Virus record (IMG/VR): IMGVR_UViG_3300035698_004207
Span: 1-59,009 of that record
Strand: one strand, 5' to 3'
Length of the DNA: 59,009 nucleotides
DNA from: a virus
The notes under the pieces were generated by a model that made no database searches, was not told where the DNA came from, and was given only the letters and a program-made list of their open reading frames with translations. Below are positions 5,857 through 46,826 of the stretch, piece by piece (within the stretch, counting starts at the first letter, position 1; the number at the start of each line of letters is the position of its first letter). Position numbers and translations under genes: made by a program.

Positions 5857-6048
5857 ATGGAAAAGACAGGCGAAGTGCGTGAGGGTATTACACCATGTGA
5901 TCACTGCGCAAAACCAGCTACATCAGTTGTTGGCAAGAAAGCTAGTTGCAAAGACCACGGTCCCGATGGATGCAAGAGCGCTAGTTGCACCACGGGCTTG
6001 AAGTCGTTTACTGAACCGTTGGAAGACGATGGGAAGTCAGATAAGTGA
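5857..6048 (+). CDS. Small Cys/His-rich metal-binding protein, 63 aa
   Basis: A CDHC motif at residues 14-17 is followed by a CKDH motif and by C...C (CKSASC), giving a Cys/His set suitable for one or two zinc ions. The ribosome site GCGGAGGTGGG is strong. It is the first gene after the promoter and its stop overlaps the GTG of the portal gene (GTGA). Small zinc proteins often precede phage portal genes in such operons, but the role is unknown. Confidence 0.65.
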   Translation: MEKTGEVREGITPCDHCAKPATSVVGKKASCKDHGPDGCKSASCTTGLKSFTEPLEDDGKSDK

Positions 6049-7820
6049 GTGACAATCCTCTGCTAAATAACGTGGGGCTCAGCAGTCAGGCGAACATTGA
6101 TTTCCCTGATCCGTTCTTGGACATGGCGTCATTGGCCATGCCTCGTTCGCTCCATGACGTACTTGACATGTGCGAGAAGATCTGGTTGAAGAACGGCACA
6201 TACCGGATGGCTGCTCAGCGCATCGTTCGATATTTTATAACTAACATTGAATTCGAACGCATCGACGACGAGAAGCGTAAGGAATTAATGGCGTTCCTTA
6301 ACACCAAGCTGCATGTGGTTGAGCAGCTGATGCTGATCGGCGACGACTTCCTGGGCTACGGTAATAGCTTTAGCTCAATCGTACTACCATTCCGAAGATT
6401 TCTACGTTGCCCCAAGTGCGGACAGCAGCGACCTATCGAGAAATCCAACTGGAAGTTCCAGAATTGGAAGTTCGTTGGTCGTTGTGCGAACTGCGGTGAG
6501 GATGTGGAGTACCAACGTATTGATCGCAGGTCGGCCGAGTCCGATCGCATTAAGGTCAAACGTTGGGCGCCCCAGGAATTCAGACTGCAGTGGCATCCGT
6601 ATAGTCAGGACTATCGATACTTCTGGCGCATACCTACGTACTTTTCCACTGAGATCAAGAAAGGTAATCCGTTCTTTGTCGAGCACACACCTTGGGAACT
6701 CATTGATACCATCAAGAAGAATCAGATCTTTAAGTTCAATCCCGGTGTTATCTACCACATGAGGGAAGAGACGTTGTCCGGCGTACGAACAGGTGGTTGG
6801 GGTGTGTCGCGATTGCTGTCTAACTTTGCACAGGCCTGGTACACACAGGTACTGCATCGGGCTAACGAGGCTATAGCGCAGGATTATGTTGTGCCGTTTA
6901 GGACCGTCACACCTGGCCCGCGCCCTGGTGCTAGTCAAGCTGATCCGCTTATCAACATGAATGTACCGGGCTTTACGCAGAAGGTCATGAACATGATCAA
7001 AGAGCATCGTAAGGATCCAGCGTCTTGGCACGCACTACCATTCCCAATAGCTTACCAGGCACTGGGCGGCGAGGCCAAGGAGCTGGTGACACCAGAAATG
7101 CTGGACCAGGGGCTAGATACGTTGCTGAACGGCATAGGTATACCGGCAGAGCTGTATCGCGGTACACTGCAGTTCCAGGCGATGCCTACGGCATTACGGT
7201 TGTTCCAGCAGACGTGGCCGCAGCTTGTTGCACAGCTGAACGGCTGGCTTGAGTGGGCGATTGAGATCATTTGTACGTCACAGAAGTGGGATCAGCCTGA
7301 GAAGGTATTCCTACAGCCTGTGACTATGGCCGATGATATTGAACGACGTCAAATATGGTTGCAGCTTGCTAGTGCAAACATGATATCAAAGAAGACGGCA
7401 TTCAGTCCTTGGAACATCAACGCACCCGAGGAACAGCGGAAGATCTTTGAAGAGCAGAAGCTGTTCGACAAACTGCAGTCTGAGTTCCAGGAAGACACGG
7501 AACAAAGTCAGATGAACAACGACGTGATGCGAGGTATGCAGCCAGGTCAGCAAGGCGGCGGCATGATGGGTGGTGGTGTTGATCCATCGCAGGCCGGTGC
7601 GGCTATGACACCTCAGGACCTGACAGCCCAGGCCGAGGAGATAGCGGCACAGCTGCTTGCCATACCTAGCGATAAGGATAGACGTACGGAGTTGGTCAAC
7701 ATCAAGCACAGCAATCCTACGCTACATGCGCAGGTTAAGCAAATGATGACCGATATGCGTGGCCAGGCCGCAAGCCAAGGCCAGCAGATGATATTGCAGC
7801 AACAGCAGCAAGGTATGTAA
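6045..7820 (+). CDS. Portal protein, 591 aa
   Basis: A long protein of portal size. The N-terminal alpha/beta part (LMLIGDDFLGYGNSF near residue 95-110) and the GIGIPAELYRGTLQFQAM segment near residue 370 resemble the conserved clip-wing region of tailed-phage portals. The C-terminal 110 residues are Gln/Gly/Met-rich and low in complexity, as in many portals. Portals form the dodecameric ring at one capsid vertex through which DNA is packaged and ejected. Odd feature: a zinc-ribbon insertion near residues 124-151 (CPKC, then CANC). The GTG start overlaps the preceding TGA. No terminase gene is visible in the window. Confidence 0.85.
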   Translation: MSDNPLLNNVGLSSQANIDFPDPFLDMASLAMPRSLHDVLDMCEKIWLKNGTYRMAAQRIVRYFITNIEFERIDDEKRKELMAFLNTKLHVVEQLMLIGDDFLGYGNSFSSIVLPFRRFLRCPKCGQQRPIEKSNWKFQNWKFVGRCANCGEDVEYQRIDRRSAESDRIKVKRWAPQEFRLQWHPYSQDYRYFWRIPTYFSTEIKKGNPFFVEHTPWELIDTIKKNQIFKFNPGVIYHMREETLSGVRTGGWGVSRLLSNFAQAWYTQVLHRANEAIAQDYVVPFRTVTPGPRPGASQADPLINMNVPGFTQKVMNMIKEHRKDPASWHALPFPIAYQALGGEAKELVTPEMLDQGLDTLLNGIGIPAELYRGTLQFQAMPTALRLFQQTWPQLVAQLNGWLEWAIEIICTSQKWDQPEKVFLQPVTMADDIERRQIWLQLASANMISKKTAFSPWNINAPEEQRKIFEEQKLFDKLQSEFQEDTEQSQMNNDVMRGMQPGQQGGGMMGGGVDPSQAGAAMTPQDLTAQAEEIAAQLLAIPSDKDRRTELVNIKHSNPTLHAQVKQMMTDMRGQAASQGQQMILQQQQQGM

Positions 7821-8101
7821 TGTTTACACGTGAAGAGCTGCAAGATATTGTAATTCGCGCGGAGGAACTGGCAGGTACGCCAGGTGTGAACCCACGTTGG
7901 ATACGGGCGTTGCTACGCTTTGCCGACGCGGCTAACACGCTGGACGCGTATTACGCACGTGGTGAGCTAGCGGTGGAGGAGGCTGTGGCGGATGCAAAGA
8001 TAATTGTGTTCCCAGATAAGGCAGGACAAGATAATGAACAAAATAGCGAAGACGCTGCCGACAGTCGAACTTCGGGGGAAACTGGTAGCCAGCCCGAGTA
8101 G
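7820..8101 (+). CDS. Hypothetical protein, 93 aa
   Basis: Begins at an ATG overlapping the portal stop (TAATG). The first 65 residues form a charged helical bundle pattern (FTREELQDIVIRAEELAG, then RWIRALLRFADAANTLDAY); the end is acidic and disordered. Its last 68 bases overlap the next gene in another frame. Small helical proteins just downstream of a portal can be head-morphogenesis factors, but no family is recognised. Confidence 0.65.
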   Translation: MFTREELQDIVIRAEELAGTPGVNPRWIRALLRFADAANTLDAYYARGELAVEEAVADAKIIVFPDKAGQDNEQNSEDAADSRTSGETGSQPE

Positions 8102-10082
8102 TCGATTAGGCGGTCATTGGTTAAAGCTTGAGGTACCCCAAGCCATTGCAGATGGTGTGGGCGCCGCTATCCACGAACACGGTTTGGAACCCAACCCCGG
8201 ACGAGCACACATCACGGTCATGGACGAGCAGGAACTATCTGCTATTGGTGGTGTGGACAAGATACGAGAGCGCGGCCAGTCTTTTAAGTTCAAGCTCGGT
8301 GCGGTCAAGCACGTTAATCCCCGTGGTTGGGACAAGATGTCCCAGGTGTATTTCGTAGTATGTACCAGCCCCGAGCTTAAGAAACTCCGCAAGAGCTATG
8401 GTCTCAAGCCGTTGTACAAAGGCCACGAATTCCACATCACGGTAGCCGTACGCCCCAAGATGGGTAAGACCGCGCAAGCTGATGTGCTGTTGCCTATGCT
8501 GGCTGGTGGTGGTGTTGGCTTGCTGGGTGATCTGATACGTAAAAAGAAGAAGGGCGAATCGTGGGTGAGCAGACACCGTAGGGCGCTGATAGGTACGCTG
8601 CTTGGTGCTGGTGTTGGCGGTGCGGCCAAAGCCTATAACTCACGGCCCCAGGCACCGGCACCCGAACCTGTTGACGACGAGATGAGTAGGTCTGGCGTTG
8701 GTCTAAACCCGAAGAGAACCGAGCACCCTACTGGTAACGAGGCTGTTGAGCAATCGATACTTGGTTCAACCACTGAGCCCGCACCTGCAGAGACGTCGGC
8801 GCTCGTAGGCCGGTTGAACATCAAGGTCCAGGCGTTGAATACAGATAAGGAAGGTGCGGGTGACGCCTACGCCTACCATGCTAACACCTACGATCGAGGC
8901 AATCCCGGTATGCTGGAGTCAGTTAGTCCCGAGGCCGGAGCCAAGGTCGTAGACGCCTACAACTCGGCTAAGACCATTGCTGGTCTTGAAGACGATCAGG
9001 CTGCTGCCATGGCTAACAGCATGATATCCGGTATAGAGCAGGCGGAGATCAATGACGAGGTACCGGACTACCAGAACCTGTGGCTGCGGTCGCTGGACGA
9101 CGCCGGGGTGTCACGTAAACGATTTGATCCACTGGTATCAACTGGTAACCGGCAGATAGAGAACTACTGGGACAGGTATCTATCGGCACCAAACTTTATA
9201 GGCGACGCGCTTGCAAGTACTACGTTAGGGGCTGTAGGTGGTGGCAAGAGCAGGGCAGCCAGGCTACTAGGTGCTCGTAAAGGCTTTGCCGGCACACCGT
9301 TGTACTTCGCTGGCGGGTACGTCGGGCAGAAGGCTATGAGCAAGTTGATGGACACCGCGGGCGTACAAGCCGAGGACACGACGTACGTACCTGGGGTTAG
9401 TGAGGCTGTTAAGGCCGTAGCTGGTAAGCTAGGCCAGGAGACGGAGGGCGAGCTGCACACCAGGTCTACCGGTAGGGTGGTAGGTGATGTTGGTGGTGGC
9501 GCGCTAGCCAGTAAGCTACCGGCGGCACTCCGCACGTTAGTCAAGTCCGGACCACGAGCTGTTGGAGCCGGTGCCGGTGCCTGGGCCAAGAAGTACATAC
9601 CACCGGTAGCTGCCGGAGCCATGGCGTTGGACGCGGCGTCCATGCCGTTCACCGACCCACGTACAGGCCGTGTGTCGTTTGACGTACGTAAGAACTTCGC
9701 TGGTAACGTTGACAAAGATATACGAGAGCAGGCACCTAAGGGTGCGCTTGACCGAGCATGGTACGGGTTTTCACATCCTGGGCGGGCTATTGGCACCAAC
9801 ATCGGTGGCCAGTATGATGCGGCGTCCGCGACAGCCAAGTCCGTAAAAGGCATGGGACTCAGCAACACCTTACGCAGCATGCTTGGTAAACGGGTTACAG
9901 GCCGGATGAGCGGCGATGCCGCTAACCGACTACAGCAGGCTAGGAAGGACGTACTTGCTGGTAAGCTGACACCCCAGGACTACAGTAAGAACGTAGGACG
10001 CATGGCAAAAGACTATGGTTTTGGACAAGAGTTTGCTACAATGCACAGACACGCGTTACTGAATCGGTTAAACGGAGGATAA
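8034..10082 (+). CDS. 2H phosphoesterase-like domain fused to a membrane-hairpin virion-type protein, 682 aa
   Basis: Residues 1-142 carry two H-x-T motifs, HITV at 59-62 (RAHITVMD) and HITV at 134-137 (EFHITVAV), about 75 residues apart, the signature of the 2H phosphoesterase fold, whose members cleave 2',3'-cyclic or 2'-5' bonds and include phage anti-CBASS nucleases of similar size. Residues 152-168 and 183-199 are glycine-zipper helices (LLPMLAGGGVGLLGDLI and RRALIGTLLGAGVGGAA) flanking a basic loop. The remaining 480 residues are Gly/Ala-rich with more short glycine-rich segments. The start at 8034 has AGGA upstream; a longer frame from 8004 has no ribosome site. Likely a virion or injected protein; the substrate is unknown. 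Confidence 0.7.
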   Translation: MNKIAKTLPTVELRGKLVASPSSRLGGHWLKLEVPQAIADGVGAAIHEHGLEPNPGRAHITVMDEQELSAIGGVDKIRERGQSFKFKLGAVKHVNPRGWDKMSQVYFVVCTSPELKKLRKSYGLKPLYKGHEFHITVAVRPKMGKTAQADVLLPMLAGGGVGLLGDLIRKKKKGESWVSRHRRALIGTLLGAGVGGAAKAYNSRPQAPAPEPVDDEMSRSGVGLNPKRTEHPTGNEAVEQSILGSTTEPAPAETSALVGRLNIKVQALNTDKEGAGDAYAYHANTYDRGNPGMLESVSPEAGAKVVDAYNSAKTIAGLEDDQAAAMANSMISGIEQAEINDEVPDYQNLWLRSLDDAGVSRKRFDPLVSTGNRQIENYWDRYLSAPNFIGDALASTTLGAVGGGKSRAARLLGARKGFAGTPLYFAGGYVGQKAMSKLMDTAGVQAEDTTYVPGVSEAVKAVAGKLGQETEGELHTRSTGRVVGDVGGGALASKLPAALRTLVKSGPRAVGAGAGAWAKKYIPPVAAGAMALDAASMPFTDPRTGRVSFDVRKNFAGNVDKDIREQAPKGALDRAWYGFSHPGRAIGTNIGGQYDAASATAKSVKGMGLSNTLRSMLGKRVTGRMSGDAANRLQQARKDVLAGKLTPQDYSKNVGRMAKDYGFGQEFATMHRHALLNRLNGG

Positions 10083-10083
10083 C

Positions 10084-11703
10084 ATGCCACCAGTATCAGA
10101 GAACCAGAGACGAGCGGCCGGCATGGCGTTGGCGGCCAAGCGCGGTGACACCAGTCCGGACATGCTTAAAGGCCCGGCCAAGGACATGTACGACGGTATG
10201 AACGAACAGCAGTTACGTGACTTTGCCAAGAAAGCGTACTGGTCTGATTTGCATGCACGGTATCCGTGGTTGAAGGCCGCGGGTGTGGATGCCGATTTAG
10301 CTGAGGTTGAGAGTGGTATTGACGAGATAGATCGTAAGATGAAGAACCGTAAATCCAAGAAGGGTAAGATGAAAAAGAAATCTGAGAAGGCTGAGGCGCC
10401 TGATTACCGTATGGCTGGTGAGTCGAAAGAACGGTGTGGTAATTGTGAGCATTATGAGAAGGGTAGTTGCATTCAATATGATTTCCCGTCCGAGTCTACG
10501 TACGTGTGTGATACGTTTGCTGCCAATCCTGAGAAGGTACAGGAGGAGCCTAAGGGTGGTCGAGCACTAGCGGAGGAGATGGAGAAGATGCCGGTACCAA
10601 CAGAAGAAGGACCGCCTGCACAACCGGCACCAGCCCCAGCAGCAGGTTCGGTAGCACCAGGTATGGCACCACCGGCTACGGATCCGATGACTGCTGACCC
10701 AATGCAACACACGCAGCAGCAGAAGATGGCTTTTGTAGCTGGTTTTGTGAAGAAATGTGAAGACCTGGGTCTACAGTCCAATAAGGTAAGGTCTATGATT
10801 GTCGTTGGTAGCCGTTGGCCAGGAGATATTGGAACGGTGTTCCAGAAAGTATCTGCTGTTGCCGGCGTAGCTGATCAACAGGGTGGTGGCACCACACCAA
10901 ACACCGGTATAGCCATTGCACCGCAGCCCAAGCCGTTACCAGCACCAGCTATGGGCAAACCCACGGCAGGGCAGGCGTTGGCGTCCGCGCCCGCACCAGG
11001 AGAGGTAGCGGGGGCCACGCAGCCGCAGACCATGCCCAAGACCTCGGAGAAGAATCCTATATCACCGTCAGAGCGTGCTGATCTACAGGGATCGGTAAAC
11101 TCGTACAAGACAGGTAAGGGCGGTAAGTACTACCCAAAGGCGTACGGTAAGCCCACGTCCTCACCTAAGGCGGGTCCCAAGTCTATGAAGGAACTTGGTA
11201 CCCAGGTAGCCAAGGTCGGGCAGCACGATACGTTCGAACAGGCTATGAGCAACTCCAAGGATCCTAAGCCTGTTGATAGAAGCGTACTTCGTGACCAGAT
11301 GAAACCAATACCGACAAAACCTATGAATATCAAAATGCGCACCTTACCGTGGAAAGCCGATAGCAAGTACGAGGCGCCGGTACACGCGGTTATGAAGTAC
11401 AAGACCGGCACCGGGACTACCAGTCCGGTTAAGAGCAAACCATTGGGACAACTTAAGAGCAAACCACTGGGACAACAGGTCATGGGACGGCGTGCCCTTC
11501 AAAAGCTCTTACCACTTACAGGGCAGTTCGCTAAAGCCGGTACAAACACACCAGCGGTAGGTGGAGGTAACACCCCGGCGGCCAAGCCCAAGGCCAAGGA
11601 CCAGGCGGCTAAGACCATGGAGATACGGAGTAAGCCCGGGTTAAAGACCCCAGAGCTTGGTACCACGCAGCCGGCACAGGATATAAGCGCAGCATCCAAG
11701 TAA
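10084..11703 (+). CDS. Structural-type protein with DUF3008-like N terminus and Cys4 motif, 539 aa
   Basis: The first 50 residues (ENQRRAAGMALAAKRGD, then MYDGMNEQQLRDFAKK) match the small DUF3008 pattern common in phages. Residues about 118-142 carry a four-Cys cluster: CGNC, then C, then YVCDTF, as in small metal or iron-sulfur modules of phage head proteins. Next comes Pro/Ala-rich linker, then KMAFVAGFVKKCEDLGL, a segment that recurs in other proteins of this window, then long low-complexity Pro/Lys/Gly sequence including a tandem KSKPLGQ repeat. GGAGG precedes the ATG. Probably a virion component; function unknown. Confidence 0.7.
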   Translation: MPPVSENQRRAAGMALAAKRGDTSPDMLKGPAKDMYDGMNEQQLRDFAKKAYWSDLHARYPWLKAAGVDADLAEVESGIDEIDRKMKNRKSKKGKMKKKSEKAEAPDYRMAGESKERCGNCEHYEKGSCIQYDFPSESTYVCDTFAANPEKVQEEPKGGRALAEEMEKMPVPTEEGPPAQPAPAPAAGSVAPGMAPPATDPMTADPMQHTQQQKMAFVAGFVKKCEDLGLQSNKVRSMIVVGSRWPGDIGTVFQKVSAVAGVADQQGGGTTPNTGIAIAPQPKPLPAPAMGKPTAGQALASAPAPGEVAGATQPQTMPKTSEKNPISPSERADLQGSVNSYKTGKGGKYYPKAYGKPTSSPKAGPKSMKELGTQVAKVGQHDTFEQAMSNSKDPKPVDRSVLRDQMKPIPTKPMNIKMRTLPWKADSKYEAPVHAVMKYKTGTGTTSPVKSKPLGQLKSKPLGQQVMGRRALQKLLPLTGQFAKAGTNTPAVGGGNTPAAKPKAKDQAAKTMEIRSKPGLKTPELGTTQPAQDISAASK

Positions 11704-11726
11704 CATAAGCGTACAGAACTGTAGTG

Positions 11727-11825
11727 ATGTACCTGCATGGTATGACCAGTATGTTGAACGTACCCGCATGGTATGACCAGTATGCTGAACGTAAGGGGCG
11801 ATTAGCAGGATTTGGTACTAAATAA
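11727..11825 (+). CDS. Possible 32-aa ORF built on a tandem repeat
   Basis: The frame runs MYLHGMTSMLN then VPAWYDQYAERKGRL to TAA at 11823. Because the underlying 31-base repeat is not a multiple of three, the two copies are read in different frames. No ribosome site is visible, so translation is doubtful. Confidence 0.2.
   Translation: MYLHGMTSMLNVPAWYDQYAERKGRLAGFGTK
11729..11790 (+). repeat. Tandem 31-bp direct repeat, two copies
   Basis: Copy 1 is 11729-11759 and copy 2 is 11760-11790, differing at two positions (T/C transitions). Each reads GTACCYGCATGG followed by TATGACCAGTATGYTGAAC. The rest of the roughly 300-base gap 11704-11999 shows no gene, tRNA or clear promoter; an in-frame extension of the next gene from 11829 has a composition unlike its neighbours. 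Confidence 0.85.
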
Positions 11826-11999
11826 GGTATGATTATGCTGGACAAAGCACAAGATATAGTGAATACTACGGGTACGAAAACTGGAACAGAGGGTGCGGTT
11901 CCTCGAGCGCTGGTTATCTCCTCGTGCAAAACCTGCCTTTTAACCCACCCTCGGTTCAGTTTACATTCCCGTTTTGCGCCCAACGCGGTAGGACACACT

Positions 12000-12836
12000 A
12001 TGGACAAGCAGGCTGATGAGGTAGCGGGTGAGGCATCGGGTGGTATAGAATCCCTGCTTGGTAAGTATTTGAGTAATCTAGGTAGTGTACGTGGGGCTGC
12101 CCCGCGTGTCTTTAAATCCCACGGCGGTCCATTAGTTGGCTCAGCAATACAGTCTATTTTACTAGGTGGATTGGGTTACGGTGCCGGGTCGTTGCTCGCT
12201 CCTCTTTATACCGATGACCCGAAGTCACGTAAACGTATACGTCGTACCATGGCCGCACTCGGCGCACTGGGCGGCCCACTTGGTAACCCAGCTCTTGGCT
12301 ACAACGTTGGTAGCATGGCACGTGAGCCTGGTAAGGCATGGCAGTACGGACTGCTCAAGTCACTCAACCTCCCAGCTACCATGAAGGGCCCGTTCGCCGA
12401 CAGACCTGTTAACTCATTCGGTGGGTACAAGAAGTCCGGTCAGTGGAGTAACAAGGGAGCTGATCCCACAGGTGGTATGCTTGGTGACGAGGAGTTCAAC
12501 ATCTACGCCTTACCGTCTTTCCACAACAGTAGTATCGCCGTTGGTCAGATGTCAGATATGGTACGTCGCTCGGGTCTGCACTCCGATGCCGCCAATCCTC
12601 TTATCGCTACCATGCAGGAAGCAGCTGGTGGTAGCCGTGGGTTAATCAGTCCAGCCAATATCATGAGTGCCGGCATGAAGCTGGGTGTCGGGTACCTGAT
12701 TGGTAAACCGGCCATGAGGTTGGTAAGCAAGACCCTGGGAGCCGTGGCCGGTACCAGCATAGCCACACAACAGAAGTTGACTAATTACGGAACTTTAGGT
12801 ATTATGCTCTACAACGCTTTTGGAGGACGAAGATGA
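12000..12836 (+). CDS. Gly-rich membrane-hairpin protein, 278 aa
   Basis: The ATG at 12000 has TAGGA 6 bases upstream; the frame is open further back to 11829, but that extension (residues such as SSCKTCLLTHPRFSLHS) looks non-coding. Residues 46-69 (GSAIQSILLGGLGYGAGSLL) and 83-100 (TMAALGALGGPLGNPALG) form two glycine-zipper hydrophobic segments around a basic loop (KSRKRIRR). A third hydrophobic Gly-rich stretch occurs near residues 225-262. The arrangement matches other proteins in this module and suggests a membrane-inserting virion protein. No enzyme motif. Confidence 0.7.
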   Translation: MDKQADEVAGEASGGIESLLGKYLSNLGSVRGAAPRVFKSHGGPLVGSAIQSILLGGLGYGAGSLLAPLYTDDPKSRKRIRRTMAALGALGGPLGNPALGYNVGSMAREPGKAWQYGLLKSLNLPATMKGPFADRPVNSFGGYKKSGQWSNKGADPTGGMLGDEEFNIYALPSFHNSSIAVGQMSDMVRRSGLHSDAANPLIATMQEAAGGSRGLISPANIMSAGMKLGVGYLIGKPAMRLVSKTLGAVAGTSIATQQKLTNYGTLGIMLYNAFGGRR

Positions 12837-13012
12837 CCGGTAAGGGCGACGTAGCTAAGTTCCTGGCAGCAAACCCAAATCCTGATGATGATCAGTTCCA
12901 TTCGTGGGCTGAAGGCGAAGGCAAAGACGTTCACAAAGCAGAAGCCGATGCGTACGAACTTGGTACCACGGCTGCTAAGTTCGAGACGGCCGCGCCAACG
13001 AAAAGAATGTGA
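12833..13012 (+). CDS. Small virion-associated-type protein, 59 aa
   Basis: Overlaps the previous stop (ATGA). The sequence contains FHSWAEGEGKDVHKAEADAY, a His/Trp-containing helix pair of a kind seen in small phage proteins encoded near head genes, named here only by pattern. It is followed through an overlapping GTG by the next gene. Function unknown. Confidence 0.6.
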   Translation: MTGKGDVAKFLAANPNPDDDQFHSWAEGEGKDVHKAEADAYELGTTAAKFETAAPTKRM

Positions 13013-13662
13013 CGGAGAGCGATGTCGATCCCAAGGAGGTTGAGAAAGGTATGGAGATCGAGAAAGAACATACTCCAGACAAAGACACGGCAAAACGTAT
13101 TACGCTAGATCATCTGGCAGAGGTACCTGACTACAACACACGACTTCTAGAAATGGAAGATGAGGCAGAAAAGGAGAGCAGCATGAGTGAAGAACTGAAG
13201 GCAGCGTGGGCAACCAGTTTTGTTAAGAAGGCCAAAGACCTAGGAGCAGATCCCAAAGAGTTGTCGTCCAAGCTTCGTAAGGTGCAGGACAAGCAGAGTG
13301 CGTTGGAGACCGCGTGGGCAACAGGCTTCGACAAACAAGCTCAGGAAATTGATGACGCAAGTGGTGGTGCAATTAGTCCCGAGCTACTACGATCGCTTAT
13401 ACCGTTACTCGGTGCCGGCATCGGTGGAGTTGGTGGCGCGGTTACCGGCGGCAAGCACAAAGTACGTAATGCGCTGATGGGTGCACTCATGGGTGGCGGA
13501 CTTGGTTACGGTGCTCAGCAGTTGACGGAGCCAAGAGCGATGGATAAGATTACAGGCGCGCTTGGTTCGGCTGGTAGCGCCATTAGTTCTGGATATGGAA
13601 GCTTGAAGAACTCACTTGGGTTTGGTAACGACCCGGCAGCAGACGCCGGCGGTATCGGTTAA
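13009..13662 (+). CDS. DUF5661-like / glycine-zipper protein, 217 aa
   Basis: Residues 8-55 (EKGMEIEKEHTPDKDTAKR then LDHLAEVPDYNTRLLEME) match the small DUF5661 pattern. Two copies of a short helix follow, KAAWATSFVKKAKDLGADPK and LETAWATGFDKQAQE. Residues 129-170 form a glycine-zipper hairpin (SLIPLLGAGIGGVGGAV, basic GKHKVRN, then ALMGALMGGGLGYGAQQ). The GTG start overlaps the previous stop; an internal ATG at 13183 with AGGAGA could also give a 159-residue form that lacks DUF5661. Likely a membrane-active virion protein. Confidence 0.65.
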   Translation: MTESDVDPKEVEKGMEIEKEHTPDKDTAKRITLDHLAEVPDYNTRLLEMEDEAEKESSMSEELKAAWATSFVKKAKDLGADPKELSSKLRKVQDKQSALETAWATGFDKQAQEIDDASGGAISPELLRSLIPLLGAGIGGVGGAVTGGKHKVRNALMGALMGGGLGYGAQQLTEPRAMDKITGALGSAGSAISSGYGSLKNSLGFGNDPAADAGGIG

Positions 13663-13676
13663 CCGTATAAAAGATA

Positions 13677-13693
13677 TTGGAACGCCGTTCCAA
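13677..13693. repeat. Dispersed palindrome, copy A
   Basis: TTGGAACGCCGTTCCAA is a perfect 8-bp inverted repeat around one central base, sitting in the 45-base gap between two genes, preceded by AAGATA. Copies B, C and D are at 30412, 39217 and 54689. No T-run follows this copy. Confidence 0.8.
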
Positions 13694-13707
13694 GAAGTGG
13701 AGGGATC

Positions 13708-14010
13708 ATGAATAGGAAAGAGGCATTTAAACTCGGGTTTGCGCGGGAACTGGCATCCAGAGGTATAACACCGTCTGATCTCGAGCCGCTGGCTAAGACA
13801 GCGGGTATTGGTAAGGCGTTGGGAGGTGCTGCTGTCGGTGTGGGGCTGGTACCGGCATTACTTGGTCTAGGACTGGGGTACGGTTATCAGCGGTCAGCTG
13901 ACGTCAGTGAACCAGATCTTAAATCGATGAAAGAGGTAGCCATGCTTAAGGAGTACGAGGCGGCTATCAAACAACTGGAGCGTGAACGTGGAAAAACCAT
14001 CACAGCTTAA
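13708..14010 (+). CDS. Small glycine-zipper protein, 100 aa
   Basis: Starts MNRKEAFKLGFARELASRG, a helix of the recurring F-x-x-G-F type, after GTGGAGGG. Residues 31-57 are a hydrophobic glycine-rich segment (GKALGGAAVGVGLVPALLGL then GLGYGYQ), probably membrane-inserting. The C-terminal 40 residues form a charged helix (EVAMLKEYEAAIKQLERERG). Its 3' end overlaps the next gene. Likely a small virion membrane protein. Confidence 0.65.
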   Translation: MNRKEAFKLGFARELASRGITPSDLEPLAKTAGIGKALGGAAVGVGLVPALLGLGLGYGYQRSADVSEPDLKSMKEVAMLKEYEAAIKQLERERGKTITA

Positions 14011-14371
14011 CGACTCATCGGCGTTGGCCACCATTGAGGGTGACCGGCAGCCAAAGCAGAGATACCGTTTGTACAGCGCTACGGCAAACGACGTGCCATT
14101 CAGGCTCAAAGAAGGCGAGCACATGCCGCACTTCAAGAGCGACGACCAGCCACAGAATCAACCACAAGATGTATGGGACGGGCACACACAGGTATTTGAT
14201 TTCTCGAAGTCAGAGGATGTAACGGCGTACAACGTAATCATTGATATGGTAGCCAAGGGTCGGGCACTGATTAGCAAAGAGGAAGTGAATTGGGATCCAC
14301 GTAGTAGCAGCTACAAGGCTTTCCTACGGTGGATTGAGATGTTTGTTGAGAAACCTAAACTAGTGGAGTAA
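13988..14371 (+). CDS. Hypothetical protein, 127 aa
   Basis: The GTG at 13988 is favoured because GGAG lies 7 bases upstream; a GTG at 13982 is too close to it. The N-terminal half is polar and Gln/Asp-rich, and the C-terminal half has a helical pattern (VTAYNVIIDMVAKGRAL, then FLRWIEMFVEK). It is soluble, without hydrophobic segments, between two membrane-type genes. No family recognised. Confidence 0.6.
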   Translation: MEKPSQLNDSSALATIEGDRQPKQRYRLYSATANDVPFRLKEGEHMPHFKSDDQPQNQPQDVWDGHTQVFDFSKSEDVTAYNVIIDMVAKGRALISKEEVNWDPRSSSYKAFLRWIEMFVEKPKLVE

Positions 14372-14373
14372 CC

Positions 14374-15971: not shown

Positions 15972-18900
15972 ATGGCCACACTACCAACAGGCCTCCGAGA
16001 TTTCCTTGACTACGGTACAACCCGTAAACGTATCTTCGATAACGTGGTGACCGGTCTTGGCGAGCGGTATCCGCTCGAGAACGATCAGTACAAGCTGGAA
16101 CTCAACGACCTACGTTACGAAGGCCCAGACAAGTTCTCCCTCAAGGAACAGAAGAAGGCTATTCTCCGACGCAAGAGCCTTGACCGTAAACTGGTCGGCA
16201 CATGGCAGCTGACGGACAAACTCACTGGCACACCGGTTGATAAACGTAAGACCGTGGTAGCCAAGGTGCCGTATCTGACTAGTCGCGGTACGTACGTGGT
16301 TAACGGCAATGAGTACACGGTAAGCAACCAGATGCGTCTTAAGTCAGGTGTGTACACACGTGTTAAGGACAACGGTGACCACGAAGCGCATTTCAATGTA
16401 TTGAGTGGCGGTCCGAGCTTCCGGGTGTTCATGGAACCCAAGACTGGTATCTTTCGTATGCAGGTAGGGCAGAGCAGATTGCCTCTTTATCCGTTACTCA
16501 AGTCCATGGGCATACCGGACTCACAGTTAGCCAAGTCATGGGGCACGGAGCTACTGCAAGCCAATTTACAGGCGTCGGCACGTAAGGGCGACACCACACT
16601 CAAGAAAGCGTGGGACCGGTTAGCCAACTCTAGGGCGTTGAAGGAAGTAGGAGAGCATCCGGAGAAAGACATGCGCATGCTGCTTGAGCGGTTCAAGCTC
16701 AATCCAGAGGTTACGCGCCGCACACTTGGTACAGCCTATGATCGTGTAACACCCGAGGCCATGATGCGCACAACAGCCAAGCTGATCAACATCTCTCAGC
16801 AGCTGGAAGACACGGACGACCGTGATAGCCTAGCGTACCAGAACACACTGAGTGCCGAGGACTTCTTTAAAGAACGGGTAGCCAAGGACGCAGGTCAGAT
16901 TGGGCGCAGACTACTGTGGAAGGCCACCATGCGTAAGAACCTTGGTAATCTACCGGCCGGTGCGCTCACTCCTCAGTTGGATCAGGTGTTCTTCAAGTCA
17001 GGTGTGGCGCAGCCGCTTGAAGAGGTGAACACCATGGACATGCTGGACCAGAACCTACGTATCATACGAATGGGTGAGGGCGGAATCCCTTGCTACTCAT
17101 CGGATACCGAGGTGCTGGCTATAGACGGGTGGAAACCGTGGCCGGATGTGGTTGAGACCGATAGATTAGCCTGTATGCAGGAAGGCCGGCTACTGTTTGA
17201 ACCTCCACGCGCTTTACATCAAGCTGACTACGTGGGTCCTATGTATCGAGGGGTTACCAAGCGCCTTGATTACCTGGTTACACCTGATCATCGTATGTAC
17301 GTATCGTATCAAGGCAATGACGGGTATTCACCTTTTTGCTTTAAGGCAGCTAAGGACGTACACGGTAAACGTATAAGGCACGTAGTTGCTGCACTACCAT
17401 ATCGTGGAGGGGGAGAGTCTAGTAGTTTTGAGATCGCGACCGCGCCCGCGCCGGTTGAGGGCGCTAACAGCGGATCTGCTCGTAAGGACGAGCTAACTGT
17501 TGATATATACGATTGGGTAGAATTCCTCGGCTACTACCTTGCAGAAGGATCATACGCCTACTGTCAAACCCGTAAAGAGTATAGGATAGAGCTGGGCAAA
17601 GTGCTTTCCAAGAACCCGGCAGAGCATAGCCGTATTGTTGATGTGATGGACCGTCTGGGTTTTACACACCGATATGAACAAGATCGCAGATTAGTAGTAT
17701 CTGGTAAGCACCTAGCGTATTACGTAAGTCAATTCGGTAAATCTGTGGATAAGTTCGTGCCCGACTTTGTAATGGCCGGATCGTACGAGCTACGAAACCG
17801 TTTCTTTCATAGTCTAGTATGCATGGATCATAGTGGGGACCTGAATGGTACATCATTTCTTTACGCATCGGCGTCAAAGACATTACGTGACCAAGCTGGG
17901 TGGCTAGCCATATCCTTAGGTTACGGCGTACATTACTATGTACGTCAGAAGGCTGGGGAGAATCCGCAATATCAGGTCAGGGTATCAAAGTCCAAGATCT
18001 CTGGTATAGCTCTTCAAAAAAACAGACAGCAGTATCAGGTGGAGCAGTATGATGGTAAAGTATATTGCGCATCGGTACCGGGGGACAAGCTGTTTGTTCG
18101 TAGAAATGGTAAGACCATGTGGTGTGGTAACTCGCAGGACGCGGTACCGATGGAATCTCGTGATGTCCAACCGTCGCACATGGGGTTCGTTGACCCAGTA
18201 CGTAGTCCGGAGTCAAGTGCCGTGGGTGTGGATAGCAGACTGGCGTACAATACGTTTAAGGGCGAGGACGACAAGCTTTACAGCCGGGTACGCAATGCCA
18301 AGGGCAAGACCGAGTACGTTACGCCCGAGGCGTTAACCGAGTCTGTTGTGGCGTTCCCGGGCGAGCTACGTCGGGCGGCCGCCGATGGTCGTAAGCGTGT
18401 TAAGGTCATGGCTGGTGGTAAACTGCAGTTCGTTGACGCCAAGGCCGTTGACTACGAGATACCAAGCTCACAAGAGTTGTTCAACTTCGGATCCAACTTG
18501 GTACCTATGATCAGTGGTAGTAAGGGCGGACGTCTACTCATGGGTGGTAAGATGGTTGGCCAGGCACTACCGTTACAAGATGCTGAGTCTCCGTTGGTAC
18601 AATCGCTTATGCCTGAAAGTGACCGCAGCTTTGAGAACAAGATGGGTAAGTACTCTGGGGTTGTGCATGCCGAGCAACCTGGTACGGTACAGCAGGTAAC
18701 TAAGGATGGGATCACGGTACTGCAGAAGGATGGTACCAAGCGCGAGTACGAGACGTACGATCACTTCCCACTCAATCGTAAGACCTATTTGAGCAGCAAG
18801 ATCGCGGTCAAGCCCGGTGATCGGGTAAAGCCCGGGCAACTACTGGCTACCAGCAACATGACGGATAGCGAGGGCACGTTGGCACTTGGTAAGAACCTGA

Positions 18901-20384
18901 ACGTCGGTTACATGCCTTACCGTGGCCTGAACTTCGAGGACGCTACGGTTATCAGCCAGGCGGCGGCCAACAAGATGAGCAGCGAACACATGTATACCTC
19001 TAAGATGGATTTCGATAGTCTGCTGAACGTCAACAAGAACAAGTTCATCTCTTTATTCCCAGGTAACTACGTGGTTAGCCAGCTCAAGAAGATGAGTGAC
19101 GACGGTGTGGTAAGGAAAGGCGCTATTCTCGAAAAAGGTGATCCGCTGATATTGGCCTTGCAGCGTAATGCCTCCAAGGGAGCGGGTATGCTGTACAAGG
19201 GCAAGAAGCGTAGCTTCACCGACGAGTCTGTTACGTGGGACCACGAGACATCAGGTGTGGTTACCGACGTGTGGGCCGACGACAAGGGTGTGAAGATAGC
19301 TACCAAGACGTTCGCGCCCGCCAAGGTCGGTGACAAGATGTGCTTCGACCCCGAGACAGACATACTAACACGAAGTGGTTGGCGGCCCGTTGCCGACATC
19401 ACGTACAAAGATGAGGTTGCTACGCTTAACACCGAGACCGACGAGCTAGAATGGCAGTACCCTACGTACGTCTGGGCCTATGATCATGTTGGTAAAATGT
19501 ACTATCTAGCAACTAAACAGTTAGACATGCTTGTCACGCTTGATCACCGTTTGTGGGTTGCCCGTCCTGGTAAAGAGTACCAGGCTGTGAAGGCCTGTGA
19601 CTTCTATAAGTCTAAGGGCGAGTGGCAGTTTAAGAAAGACTGTAACTGGCGCGGAGTTGATCGGAAAGCTATTGCGTTTGAATCGTATACGCCACGTAAC
19701 TCTAGAGAAAATTGTCTGACAAGTGCTAGCATGGACGATTGGTTGGAATTCTTAGGCTATTACATCGCCGAAGGTTGGAGTATTTATCAAGAACATAAGA
19801 ATCACAAGTACGTTCGCATAGCCCAGTACCCTGGCGATATATGCGATAAAATTGAAGCGGTGATCAAGCGGTTGGGGCTAAGGTATTCTTACGATGAGAA
19901 GGATAAACGATTTGTTATTAACAGCAAATGGCTGTATTCGGTGTTGGAGCCTTTAGGAAACAGCCGCTCGAAGTACGTGCCCGCGTATATTCAGGAGCTT
20001 TGTCCTCGGCAGCTGCAAATCTTTTTGGACGCGTATTTGGATGGCGACGGTCACCGCGGTGCCTGCTACGAGTACACAACTTCTTCAAAGCGTTTGGCGT
20101 ACGATATACAACTCATTTGTTTGAAGTTGGGGTTTACGGCGAGTGTTAAGAAAGTAGAACGTGTCGATAACTGGCAGAAAGTTCCTTGCTATCGGGCGAG
20201 GATCAATAGAACGCAGCTAAGACCGCGGTGGAAGAAAAGCCGGGCAAAGCAGTATGCGTCTGTTCAAGAGAAGTTAGTAGATTATGAGGGTAAGGTCCAT
20301 TGTATTACTGTAGCTAATCACGTGATATATTGTAAAAGGAGGGACAAAACGTACTGGTCACATAATAGTGGCCGGTACGGTTAA
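15972..20384 (+). CDS. RNA polymerase beta subunit, N-terminal and central part, with inteins 1 and 2
   Basis: Multisubunit RNA polymerase beta. Recognisable segments: YVVNGNEYTVSNQMRLKSGV (bacterial FIINGTERVVVSQ region), SRDVQPSHMGFVDPVRSPE (bacterial RDVHPTHYG..P.ETPE), ALGKNLNVGYMPYRGLNFED, and KVGDKM with the first catalytic lysine. Intein 1 follows GEGGIP; intein 2 follows GDKM. Without inteins this part is about 781 residues. The frame stops at TAA (20382-20384) right after SGRYG, yet the same frame resumes 9 bases later with the conserved DKGIIS, so the gene is interrupted rather than finished. AGGAGG precedes the ATG. It lies among virion genes, so a packaged or late polymerase is possible. 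Confidence 0.92.
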   Translation: MATLPTGLRDFLDYGTTRKRIFDNVVTGLGERYPLENDQYKLELNDLRYEGPDKFSLKEQKKAILRRKSLDRKLVGTWQLTDKLTGTPVDKRKTVVAKVPYLTSRGTYVVNGNEYTVSNQMRLKSGVYTRVKDNGDHEAHFNVLSGGPSFRVFMEPKTGIFRMQVGQSRLPLYPLLKSMGIPDSQLAKSWGTELLQANLQASARKGDTTLKKAWDRLANSRALKEVGEHPEKDMRMLLERFKLNPEVTRRTLGTAYDRVTPEAMMRTTAKLINISQQLEDTDDRDSLAYQNTLSAEDFFKERVAKDAGQIGRRLLWKATMRKNLGNLPAGALTPQLDQVFFKSGVAQPLEEVNTMDMLDQNLRIIRMGEGGIPCYSSDTEVLAIDGWKPWPDVVETDRLACMQEGRLLFEPPRALHQADYVGPMYRGVTKRLDYLVTPDHRMYVSYQGNDGYSPFCFKAAKDVHGKRIRHVVAALPYRGGGESSSFEIATAPAPVEGANSGSARKDELTVDIYDWVEFLGYYLAEGSYAYCQTRKEYRIELGKVLSKNPAEHSRIVDVMDRLGFTHRYEQDRRLVVSGKHLAYYVSQFGKSVDKFVPDFVMAGSYELRNRFFHSLVCMDHSGDLNGTSFLYASASKTLRDQAGWLAISLGYGVHYYVRQKAGENPQYQVRVSKSKISGIALQKNRQQYQVEQYDGKVYCASVPGDKLFVRRNGKTMWCGNSQDAVPMESRDVQPSHMGFVDPVRSPESSAVGVDSRLAYNTFKGEDDKLYSRVRNAKGKTEYVTPEALTESVVAFPGELRRAAADGRKRVKVMAGGKLQFVDAKAVDYEIPSSQELFNFGSNLVPMISGSKGGRLLMGGKMVGQALPLQDAESPLVQSLMPESDRSFENKMGKYSGVVHAEQPGTVQQVTKDGITVLQKDGTKREYETYDHFPLNRKTYLSSKIAVKPGDRVKPGQLLATSNMTDSEGTLALGKNLNVGYMPYRGLNFEDATVISQAAANKMSSEHMYTSKMDFDSLLNVNKNKFISLFPGNYVVSQLKKMSDDGVVRKGAILEKGDPLILALQRNASKGAGMLYKGKKRSFTDESVTWDHETSGVVTDVWADDKGVKIATKTFAPAKVGDKMCFDPETDILTRSGWRPVADITYKDEVATLNTETDELEWQYPTYVWAYDHVGKMYYLATKQLDMLVTLDHRLWVARPGKEYQAVKACDFYKSKGEWQFKKDCNWRGVDRKAIAFESYTPRNSRENCLTSASMDDWLEFLGYYIAEGWSIYQEHKNHKYVRIAQYPGDICDKIEAVIKRLGLRYSYDEKDKRFVINSKWLYSVLEPLGNSRSKYVPAYIQELCPRQLQIFLDAYLDGDGHRGACYEYTTSSKRLAYDIQLICLKLGFTASVKKVERVDNWQKVPCYRARINRTQLRPRWKKSRAKQYASVQEKLVDYEGKVHCITVANHVIYCKRRDKTYWSHNSGRYG
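17091..18131 (+). mobile_element. Intein 1 in RNA polymerase beta (347 aa)
   Basis: Residues 374-720. Starts CYSSDTEVLAIDGWKPW (block A), has TPDHRMYV (block B), LAGLIDADG-type endonuclease block WVEFLGYYLAEGSY and a degenerate second block near MDHSGDLNG, and ends VYCASVPGDKLFVRRNG then MWCGN before Ser+1. The penultimate His is replaced by Gly, as in some active inteins. The insertion point is between GEGGIP and SQDAVPMESRDV. Confidence 0.92.
19341..20366 (+). mobile_element. Intein 2 in RNA polymerase beta (342 aa)
   Basis: Residues 1124-1465. Starts CFDPETDILTRSGWRPV; block B is TLDHRLWV. Two LAGLIDADG blocks are intact in form (WLEFLGYYIAEGWS, FLDAYLDGDGHRG). It ends VHCITVANHVIYCKRR then YWSHN before Ser+1. 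It sits between GDKM and SGRYG, between the two catalytic lysines, with the in-frame TAA only 15 bases downstream. It resembles intein 1 and may be related to it. Confidence 0.93.
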
Positions 20385-26935: not shown

Positions 26936-27179
26936 CGACGACTTTCGTAATTCCAACGAAAGCATAGAGATATTCTTTGATTCCCGTACGAAGAAACTAA
27001 CAGGTCTGGGAGTGCTTAGGTCAAGGATAGCTATCCCGGATGGTGTGGGTGAGCGCGTAGACGGCGCGGCCGAAGATAGTAGGCTTTGCCCAGTTAATGA
27101 GGCGTTTGGCGACCTGCTTGATAACTTCGTTGTAGACCTGTGTGAGGTGCTAGAAGGTGGTGTCGAGAAAGGTGCTTAA
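26919..27179 (+). CDS. Hypothetical acidic protein, 86 aa
   Basis: Starts MTEQSNDDFRNSNESIEIFF, overlapping the preceding gene by 17 bases and the following gene by 23 bases. The middle part (LGVLRSRIAIPDGVGERV) looks like a small beta module and the end is acidic. No family recognised. Confidence 0.55.
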   Translation: MTEQSNDDFRNSNESIEIFFDSRTKKLTGLGVLRSRIAIPDGVGERVDGAAEDSRLCPVNEAFGDLLDNFVVDLCEVLEGGVEKGA

Positions 27180-36194: not shown

Positions 36195-37040
36195 ATGAAG
36201 CTGCTACTTAAATTACTCAACAAGATACTGCAAGCATTCAGAAAGGGCGAACCAATGAAGAGAGCACTATGTGTGGCAATCAACGACTACCCGGGAACAG
36301 CTCAGGACCTATCGGGCTGTGTACGAGACTGTAAAACCATGAGCAACACCTTGCTTAACACCTTTGGTATATCGGAGCAGGTGAAGTTGCTGAACAACCG
36401 GGCTACCCGTAAGAACATCTTGGCCGAGCTGGCTGAGTTAGTGAAGAAAACCCTTAAGGGTGAGTGGCTGGTGTTCTACTACAGTGGGCACGGCACATGG
36501 GTCCCCGATGTCTCTGGTGACGAACCTGATGGGCGAGACGAGGCGCTGTATGTGTATGGACGCCGTAAGAAAGACCGAATTCTGTTGGACGACGACCTAC
36601 GAGCGGTTATCGATGGTCTGGCGCCAGGTGCCAATCTACTGGTTATCTCAGACAGCTGTCACAGCGGTTCGGTTACCCGGGCGTTGGCAGACATGGATGA
36701 GGGAGTGGTACCAACTAAGAAGTACGTGGCTCCAGAAGGTATTAAGGACGTGCCGTCCAAGGTCGCTAAGCACTTTGGTACCCCCGACGCCAAGAGCCCT
36801 ATCAACCATATACTGATCTCAGGCTGCTCACCAACTCAGTACTCGTATGAGGCGGTTATCGGTAACGCGGTCAGAGGTGTGTTCACCCACAGGTTAATCA
36901 ACGTTTTGAAGAAGAACCCTAAGGCTACGATTGGCAAGATCTACCAGGTCTTGCGTACGAAGCTGCCGTCTGCGAAGTTCGCTCAGACCCCGCAGTTGGA
37001 TTGCAAGCCAGAGGACAAAAAGACAAGGATATTCCAATAA
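36195..37040 (+). CDS. Metacaspase (caspase-like C14 peptidase), 281 aa
   Basis: The p20-like core is intact: KRALCVAINDYPGTAQDLSG near residue 22, YYSGHGTW with His99, and ISDSCHSGS with Cys155, the caspase His/Cys dyad. A Cys-containing activation segment (ISGCSPTQYSYE) follows and the end reads as a p10-like subdomain. Metacaspases cleave after Arg or Lys. The first 20 residues (MKLLLKLLNKILQAFRKGEP) are an amphipathic helix and an internal ATG at 36255 could give a shorter form. AGGAGG precedes the first ATG. Caspase-fold proteases are rare in phages; role unknown (virion maturation, host killing or counter-defence are guesses). Confidence 0.85.
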   Translation: MKLLLKLLNKILQAFRKGEPMKRALCVAINDYPGTAQDLSGCVRDCKTMSNTLLNTFGISEQVKLLNNRATRKNILAELAELVKKTLKGEWLVFYYSGHGTWVPDVSGDEPDGRDEALYVYGRRKKDRILLDDDLRAVIDGLAPGANLLVISDSCHSGSVTRALADMDEGVVPTKKYVAPEGIKDVPSKVAKHFGTPDAKSPINHILISGCSPTQYSYEAVIGNAVRGVFTHRLINVLKKNPKATIGKIYQVLRTKLPSAKFAQTPQLDCKPEDKKTRIFQ

Positions 37041-45656: not shown

Positions 45657-46826
45657 TTGAAAGACTACGCTAAGGAACTTGCAGCTACCACAATCGTAGC
45701 CCAGGATTTGGGTACCGAGTTCACCAGGTCAGCTCAGTTCGATAAATCCTCTCAGCTCAGCGACGAGGCTATCAAGATGCTGCTCATGGGTGGTGTCGGA
45801 GGTATTGGTGGCGGACTTGCTGGTTTCTACGGTGGGGGCGAGAACCGCAAGCGCAACGCACTACTTGGCGCACTACTTGGTGGTGGCCTAGGAGCTGGAG
45901 CCGGTTCGTTTATGGGCCGTGAGCCCGAAGAACCTGTTGTAGACGAGCGGGTAGCTGGTGGGGTTGATCCACTACCTACAGCAGACGAAGCGTACAGCAC
46001 TATAAACGAGGCTGATCCCGATACGGTTACCAGGATAGAGAACGCGATCGGCAAACTTGGACAGAGTGGTCGAGAGGCAGGAGAAGCTGGCAAGGATTTC
46101 GTGACAAACGCTGTCATACCTACGGCTATCGGTGGAGCAACTGGTTACGGTCTTGGTAGAGCCGGATCCAATGCTGGTGCAGGCGCTCTTGATAGGCGTA
46201 AGATAGACCGTGTGCTCAACTCTAAGGTAGACGAGTTCATCGGCGGCGCCAGGAGGGGTAATCCCAACACTATTGATAGACTACGGAAATGGTATGGCGA
46301 CAAGCACGTAGGTACCGAGCAGGGTTGGAACCTGGGCGACTTTGATAAGGACTTCCTTCCGATGCTGTCTAACGAGGGTGGTACTCGCGGCACAGCCATT
46401 CGTAACAGCTTGGACGAGCTTCGTAGTACCCACAGTCTTGGTAAGGCCAGAGACGCCTATAAGGCGACGCCGCGCAGGAGGTCCAACAGACAGGTGATTA
46501 ACGACATAGGTCGTAAGGCCAGGAGCGTAGAGCTACCGGTTACACCACGAGCCAAGCTTATGCCAGGCGATATCGAGGGCATGCAGCGCTTCAAGGTCTT
46601 GGACCCGGCTTTACCTACGCACAAGCGTAACCCAAGCAACTCTACTGTTCGCAGGTCTATACGAGAGGGTGTTAAGGACCTACTGTCTCCTGATATCAAG
46701 GCCGGTATCAAGCCTTCGGTATCAGGTAGGTTTCTTAAGCGACTAGGGCCTCTGGCTCCGTTGCTTGCAGGAGCGTGGTTGCTAGCACCGGATAGTGTTT
46801 CTAGAACCAAAACTGAGTTCAAATAA
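45657..46826 (+). CDS. Glycine-zipper membrane protein, 389 aa
   Basis: Start is TTG, preceded by CGGAGAC. Residues 40-86 form a glycine-zipper hairpin (MLLMGGVGGIGGGLAGFYG, basic GENRKRN, ALLGALLGGGLGAGAGSFM) nearly identical in layout to the 13009 gene product. A second hydrophobic Gly-rich stretch lies at about 150-165 (AIGGATGYGLGRAGSN). The C-terminal half is basic and disordered and ends with a hydrophobic segment (LAPLLAGAWLLAP). Likely a virion protein that inserts in a membrane. Confidence 0.65.
   Translation: MKDYAKELAATTIVAQDLGTEFTRSAQFDKSSQLSDEAIKMLLMGGVGGIGGGLAGFYGGGENRKRNALLGALLGGGLGAGAGSFMGREPEEPVVDERVAGGVDPLPTADEAYSTINEADPDTVTRIENAIGKLGQSGREAGEAGKDFVTNAVIPTAIGGATGYGLGRAGSNAGAGALDRRKIDRVLNSKVDEFIGGARRGNPNTIDRLRKWYGDKHVGTEQGWNLGDFDKDFLPMLSNEGGTRGTAIRNSLDELRSTHSLGKARDAYKATPRRRSNRQVINDIGRKARSVELPVTPRAKLMPGDIEGMQRFKVLDPALPTHKRNPSNSTVRRSIREGVKDLLSPDIKAGIKPSVSGRFLKRLGPLAPLLAGAWLLAPDSVSRTKTEFK

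What the first reader, a model, noticed from the sequence alone, without database searches (positions are those of the whole stretch)
8034..8640. 2H phosphoesterase domain at the N terminus of a membrane-hairpin virion-type protein
Two HITV motifs 75 residues apart define a 2H domain of about 142 residues, similar in size to phage anti-CBASS enzymes of the Acb1 type. It is joined to glycine-zipper helices rather than being free. If the protein is packaged, the enzyme could enter the host with the DNA and act before phage expression, for example on cyclic nucleotides or on RNA ends.
Basis: partly seen in the sequence, partly recalled or inferred. Interest (0 to 1): 0.7.

Follow-up and report, generated by a model that had tools for sequence, protein, structure and literature searches.

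The report
2H phosphoesterase on phage virion-type protein
A large uncultured phage carries an intact-looking enzyme domain that cuts RNA-type phosphate bonds at the front of a protein that looks built to travel in the virus particle; the idea of such injected enzymes is published, but this fusion and its gene partners are new.

Summary
The ORF 8034-10082 (682 aa) starts with a 2H domain: Pfam PF22547 (2H-SAK) matches residues 54-142 at 51-55 bits (cut-off 27), with HITV at residues 59-62 and 134-137. Both catalytic His are invariant in nine aligned relatives. It is a 2H-SAK domain, not Acb1: the Acb1 and LigT Pfam models do not match. Low-confidence AlphaFold models still put Usb1, phage PDEs, poxvirus cGAMP PDE and Acb1 at the top of the fold search. 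Residues 147-201 carry a glycine-zipper hairpin that recurs in four other proteins of this phage. The gene lies between portal and a multisubunit RNAP gene; in the relative Arash that RNAP is the most abundant protein in particles. Relatives have the 2H alone or fused to SET or GNAT+HAD domains, i.e. 'polyvalent' proteins. Among 21 related phages InPase occurs only with the 2H (5/11 vs 0/10) and RNA ligases only without it (0/11 vs 5/10). Best reading: a virion-carried 2H enzyme acting early on 2',3'-cyclic or other RNA-type phosphodiesters in small nucleotides or RNA ends. Packaging and substrate are inferred. Iyer et al. 2017 predicted injected 2H effectors; the hairpin fusion is a new variant.

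The parts
8034..10082 (+). 682-aa protein: N-terminal 2H-SAK domain, glycine-zipper hairpin, about 480 aa Gly/Ala-rich tail with no database match
   Evidence: ORF; Pfam; full protein has no tblastn match in 50,697 phage records; tail has only marginal hits in related loci
8193..8459 (+). 2H-SAK phosphoesterase domain core (Pfam PF22547 match, residues 54-142)
8208..8219 (+). first catalytic motif HITV (H59, T61)
   Evidence: His invariant in nine aligned relatives
8433..8444 (+). second catalytic motif HITV (H134, T136)
   Evidence: H and T invariant in nine aligned relatives
8328..8330 (+). Trp99, invariant in the window's clade; placed opposite base-stacking W74 of T4 Acb1 in one weak hhalign alignment only
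8472..8636 (+). glycine-zipper hairpin (residues 147-201): two Gly-rich segments around a basic KKKK...RHRR turn
   Evidence: BLASTP to 45657-46826 at 1.7e-6; hairpin profile, circular by construction; hydropathy
6045..7820 (+). portal protein (context)
   Evidence: tblastn to portal of Salmonella phage Arash, 2e-59
7820..8101 (+). 93-aa ORF between portal and 2H gene, overlapping the start of the 2H gene (context)
15972..20384 (+). RNA polymerase beta-type subunit (context); its homologue in Arash is the most abundant virion protein
   Evidence: PHROG beta matches; alignment to Arash gp206 and relatives; PMC10585845
34250..36193 (+). DUF192 + InPase (PF18823) protein, the enzyme family that co-occurs with the 2H in relatives
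36195..37040 (+). caspase-like peptidase (PF00656) next to the InPase gene; a homologue lies just upstream of the 2H gene in relative L099
13009..13662 (+). DUF5661 + glycine-zipper hairpin protein sharing the hairpin cassette
45657..46826 (+). protein sharing the hairpin cassette (BLASTP 1.7e-6 to residues 149-237 of the 2H protein)

Best explanation
The protein is most likely a virion (ejection-type) protein whose N-terminal domain is an active 2H-SAK phosphoesterase. Shown: the domain, the conserved catalytic HxT/S pair, the hairpin fused behind it, its place between portal and RNAP genes, and relatives that use the same domain alone or in multidomain effector-like proteins. Inferred: the hairpin and tail hold it in the particle and help it cross or sit at the host membrane during ejection; the enzyme then opens or cuts RNA-type phosphodiesters (2',3'-cyclic phosphates on nucleotides or RNA ends, or cyclic/2'-5' oligonucleotides) by metal-free acid-base catalysis with H59 and H134, before phage genes are expressed. 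Because its relatives lack RNA ligases and tend to carry InPase, I favour clearing of small nucleotide products or signals over ligase-coupled RNA repair.
For: PF22547 above cut-off in the window and every relative tested. Catalytic His invariant in nine aligned relatives at 35-44% identity. Profile link between the window's clade and the huge-phage 2H-SAK clade, window left out of both: hhalign 96.5%, E 8e-10. Relatives: 2H+SET (L096), 2H+GNAT+HAD (L097). InPase in 5/11 phages with 2H vs 0/10 without (Fisher 0.023); RNA ligase families 0/11 vs 5/10 (0.012). Virion theme: Arash RNAP beta has the highest spectral count in particles; the window's InPase domain matches the Pa193 portal chain, 4e-26.
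Against: No proteomics of this phage or of any 2H-bearing relative. Models have mean pLDDT 50-52. The window protein itself has only one recognised enzyme domain. Most relatives (7 of 9 in L096-L104) have the 2H as a small separate protein, so the fusion is not needed for its function. The second hairpin arm is only weakly hydrophobic. Co-occurrence counts are small, from hand-picked, partly incomplete and related genomes.
Confidence: 0.45

Rival explanations
1. RNA end healing: the 2H opens 2',3'-cyclic phosphates left on tRNA or RNA cleaved by host nucleases so that ends can be rebuilt or sealed.
For: The Pfam name points to 'Swiss Army Knife' proteins, RNA repair proteins as I recall. Solo 2H-SAK genes in huge phages lie within a few kb of a CCA-adding tRNA nucleotidyltransferase in 17 of 23 contigs. 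In L097 the 2H is fused to a HAD domain; in L103 the next rightward gene (beyond a small minus-strand CsrA-like gene) encodes InPase+GNAT+LigD 3'-phosphoesterase and a KIDG ligase motif. Arash particles contain two RNA ligases.
Against: None of the 11 phages with 2H in the window's group has PF09414, PF09511 or RtcB above cut-off, while 5 of 10 without it do; none has the CCA-adding family. Iyer 2017 also found polyvalent-type 2H apart from RNA ligases.
Confidence: 0.25
2. Acb1-like anti-CBASS enzyme: it degrades cyclic di- or trinucleotide immune signals on entry.
For: Same catalytic HxT/HxT arrangement; Acb1 structures among the top fold matches (Z 5.0, 3.5 A over 119 residues); an invariant Trp that one weak alignment places opposite base-stacking W74; co-occurrence with a nucleotide-type InPase.
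Against: No PF23474 match; hhalign to an Acb1 profile 14% and out of register. Other Acb1 contacts (Y12, F107, E141, C-terminal lid) could not be placed. The fold match is tied with those to Usb1 and other 2H enzymes.
Confidence: 0.15
3. Usb1-like ribonuclease effector: the 2H cuts host RNA and leaves a cyclic end.
For: Usb1 is the top fold match in both searches (Z 5.5 and 4.9); Iyer 2017 proposed RNase action for phage 2H domains.
Against: Z values of the 2H families are tied; no sequence link to Usb1 in the PDB sequence searches.
Confidence: 0.1
4. The 2H domain works inside the infected cell during late infection or assembly and is not injected; the hairpin only anchors it to the membrane or scaffold.
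For: Solo 2H relatives without hairpin; no proteomics.
Against: Position between portal and a virion-type RNAP gene; a hairpin shared with four other proteins of the phage.
Confidence: 0.15

Closest known systems
2H domains of phage polyvalent proteins (Iyer et al. 2017, PMC5512222)
   Same: 2H domain in phage genes near virion genes; relatives carry several unrelated enzyme domains; same proposed role (RNase or breakdown of immune nucleotides); InPase in the same phages
   Different: The window protein joins the 2H to a glycine-zipper hairpin and an unrecognised tail, not to MuF, portal or other enzymes
Pfam PF22547 2H-SAK
   Same: Sequence membership above the curated cut-off; both HxT/S motifs
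   Different: Solo huge-phage members lie by a CCA-adding enzyme; the window's clade has InPase neighbours or fusions with SET, GNAT, HAD instead
Acb1 anti-CBASS nucleases (PF23474, PMC9117128)
   Same: 2H-type fold match and HxT/HxT tetrad, similar size
   Different: Different sequence family; Acb1 is a free protein with its own C-terminal lid; the window protein is not hit by the Acb1 model
Virion enzymes of the related Salmonella phage Arash (PMC10585845)
   Same: Homologous portal and RNAP beta in the same order; RNAP and RNA-processing enzymes detected in particles
   Different: Arash has no 2H-SAK match and has RtcB

Membership tests
PF22547 2H-SAK | Score above Pfam gathering cut-off | tested here: met
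   51.3-54.8 bits vs 27
PF22547 2H-SAK | Two H-x-[S/T] motifs, conserved among relatives | tested here: met
   H59/T61 and H134/T136; His invariant in 10 aligned sequences
2H phosphoesterase superfamily | 2H fold with paired catalytic motifs | tested here: inconclusive
   Mean pLDDT 50.5 and 51.6; yet the top fold matches are 2H enzymes, best Z 5.5 and 4.9
Acb1 (PF23474) | Match to the Acb1 model | tested here: not met
   No PF23474 hit at E up to 1; T4 Acb1 scores 2.7e-60
Acb1 (PF23474) | Base-stacking aromatics, E141 and C-terminal lid | tested here: inconclusive
   W99 aligned to W74 in one weak alignment, other positions not placeable
Acb1 (PF23474) | Cleavage of cyclic di/trinucleotides | not testable with these tools
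   Needs biochemistry
LigT/ThpR (PF02834) | Match to the LigT model | tested here: not met
   No hit for the window protein at E up to 1; nine relatives vs E. coli ThpR hhalign 0.2%
Phage polyvalent proteins | Several disparate enzymatic domains in one polypeptide | tested here: not met
   One recognised enzyme domain in the window protein; met in relatives L096 and L097
Phage polyvalent proteins | Gene among virion genes | tested here: met
   Portal at 6045-7820, RNAP beta at 15972
Phage polyvalent proteins | Packaged and injected | not testable with these tools
   No virion proteome for this phage

The most novel reading that the evidence does not exclude
A virion-delivered 2H enzyme tethered by a glycine-zipper hairpin at the DNA entry site, working with injected InPase to destroy nucleotide alarm signals around the incoming DNA and RNA polymerase before any phage gene is expressed.
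Probability: 0.15. Interest if true: 0.75.

Novelty: new variant of a known kind. Interest (0 to 1): 0.42.

Why it matters
T4 Acb1 is encoded by the phage genome and, as far as I know, made after entry. A 2H enzyme carried in the particle could act before host signalling builds up. The clade found here (ten relatives plus the window), the co-occurrence with InPase and the absence of RNA ligases give a testable set for asking what phage 2H-SAK domains cut, for which I found no experimental report in the papers I could search.

Tried and rejected
Membership in Acb1 or LigT: rejected by Pfam and profile comparison. Close relatives by single-protein scans and tblastn against phage and plasmid records: none; only portal and RNAP alignments led to relatives. 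Bacterial genomes: two scans gave no relative, but these pattern scans reach only close or conserved matches. PDB sequence search: nothing useful for the 2H domain. I first read the 8034-15963 block as an insertion relative to Arash; closer relatives have variable genes, several Gly-rich, between portal and RNAP, so it is better called a variable cassette. The literature source of the name 2H-SAK was not in the library. The hairpin profile finds no ORF in related loci at E 0.01; it was built from the window's own copies, so its window scores are circular.

Full report
Observation. The ORF from ATG 8034 to stop 10082 encodes 682 aa. Its first 142 residues contain HITV at 59-62 and 134-137, 75 residues apart. 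Pfam identifies residues 54-142 as 2H-SAK, PF22547, well above cut-off; NCBIfam and PADLOC give nothing and PHROGs nothing significant. Shuffled versions of the protein reach the strict motif pair in 0.24% of cases.

Fold. Two AlphaFold runs, with 5 and 20 sequences, gave mean pLDDT 50.5 and 51.6, so the models are weak. Even so, structural alignment against PDB ranks 2H enzymes first in both: human Usb1, a Burkholderia phage BCSR5 phosphodiesterase, Acb1, poxvirus cGAMP PDE and plant CPDase, with unrelated folds further down. This does not decide the substrate, since these rows are tied.

Relatives. Sequence-only searches found no close relative in phage, plasmid or bacterial collections at the sensitivity available. 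Weak hits in two 635-642 kb uncultured phage genomes led to 2H-SAK genes in 23 contigs; 17 of these have a CCA-adding tRNA nucleotidyltransferase gene nearby. An alignment of the neighbouring RNAP gene led to relatives of the window phage, one with a 2H at 44% identity; an alignment of that 2H with the window's led to nine contigs (L096-L104) at 36-47% identity over the 2H (L100 is the same phage as L090), and a family search added a tenth phage, that of L047. In these the 2H is solo (182-279 aa, seven contigs), fused to SET (L096), or to GNAT and HAD (L097); the L047 phage has 2H plus a long low-complexity tail. With the window left out of both sides, the two clades still match by hhalign at 96.5%. 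H59, H134 and T136 are invariant in the window's clade and T61 is T or S. Some huge-phage copies have lost one motif (L027, L034).

Not Acb1. T4 Acb1 and relatives match PF23474 and the window does not. An Acb1 profile of seven sequences aligns at 14% and out of register. One weak alignment places window Trp99 opposite Acb1 W74, which stacks on a base; Trp99 is invariant in the clade, a lead only.

Context. The gene follows the portal and a 93-aa ORF. An RNAP beta-type gene begins at 15972. In Arash, Vibrio phage D181 and L014-L018, portal and small protein are followed directly by RNAP or other genes, and the records tested lack PF22547. In closer relatives a variable set of genes lies between portal and RNAP. 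In Arash particles the RNAP beta subunit has the highest spectral count among 116 detected proteins, and two RNA ligases are detected (PMC10585845); the authors note that abundant enzymes could also be carry-over. So genes around the portal of this group can encode virion enzymes, by analogy only.

Hairpin. Residues 147-201 hold two glycine-rich segments around a basic turn. BLASTP between window proteins links this stretch to 45657-46826 (1.7e-6), and links 13009-13662 to 45657-46826 (6e-11), 11829-12836 and 13708-14010. Only the first segment is clearly hydrophobic. A shared tag for packaging, oligomerisation or membrane contact is the simplest inference.

Partners. In 21 related phages, InPase (PF18823) occurs in 5 of 11 with 2H and 0 of 10 without (Fisher 0.023). 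RNA ligase families PF09414, PF09511 and RtcB occur above cut-off in 0 of 11 with 2H and 5 of 10 without (0.012). Sets are small, hand-picked and related, and several records are fragments. InPase follows the 2H gene directly in L101 and L102, and after a small minus-strand CsrA-like gene in L103 and L104. The window's InPase protein at 34250 matches the C-terminal part of the Pa193 portal chain, a region without density in that structure.

Mechanism. I conclude that a catalytically competent-looking 2H domain is carried on a structural-type protein and acts early, most likely on small nucleotides or RNA ends bearing 2',3'-cyclic or similar linkages. The association with InPase and the lack of ligases tilt me toward nucleotide clearing; the CCA-enzyme link in the other clade keeps RNA end healing alive. 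Packaging, membrane insertion and substrate are inferred.

Known or new. Iyer et al. 2017 described 2H and InPase domains as found, among polyvalent proteins, only in the phage type, and proposed RNase or signal-nucleotide breakdown. The window case fits that theme. The hairpin fusion, the clade and the partner pattern were not found in the papers I could read.

Noticed in passing
36195-37040: Caspase-like peptidase (PF00656, 3e-29) in a phage, directly after the InPase gene; a homologue lies just upstream of the 2H gene in L099 (8507-9262). Of 21 related phages only these two, both 2H-bearing, have it.
   Followed up: partly
42347-43306: Subtilase S8 family peptidase (1.7e-38) in the late region.
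   Followed up: no
20430-26456 and 46839-49493: LAGLIDADG/intein-like insertions in the large RNAP gene and in an 884-aa protein with Hint-type matches.
   Followed up: no
11829-12836, 13009-13662, 13708-14010, 45657-46826: A glycine-zipper hairpin cassette recurs in four further proteins of this phage, near short repeats of the type F-x-x-GF-x-K-K-A-x-x-LG.
   Followed up: partly
L103:11160-13790: Protein with InPase, GNAT, LigD 3'-phosphoesterase and a KIDG ligase motif, the next rightward gene after a 2H gene.
   Followed up: partly
L103:10637-11065 and L104:10462-10953, minus strand: Two phages carry a tandem CsrA-like protein (by eye) beside the 2H gene.
   Followed up: no
L004, L005, L010-L013, L023-L043: Solo 2H-SAK genes of huge phages lie close to a CCA-adding tRNA nucleotidyltransferase in 17 of 23 contigs, a possible ligase-free tRNA end repair pair.
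   Followed up: partly
27157-28485: Glycosyltransferase gene within the late region.
   Followed up: no
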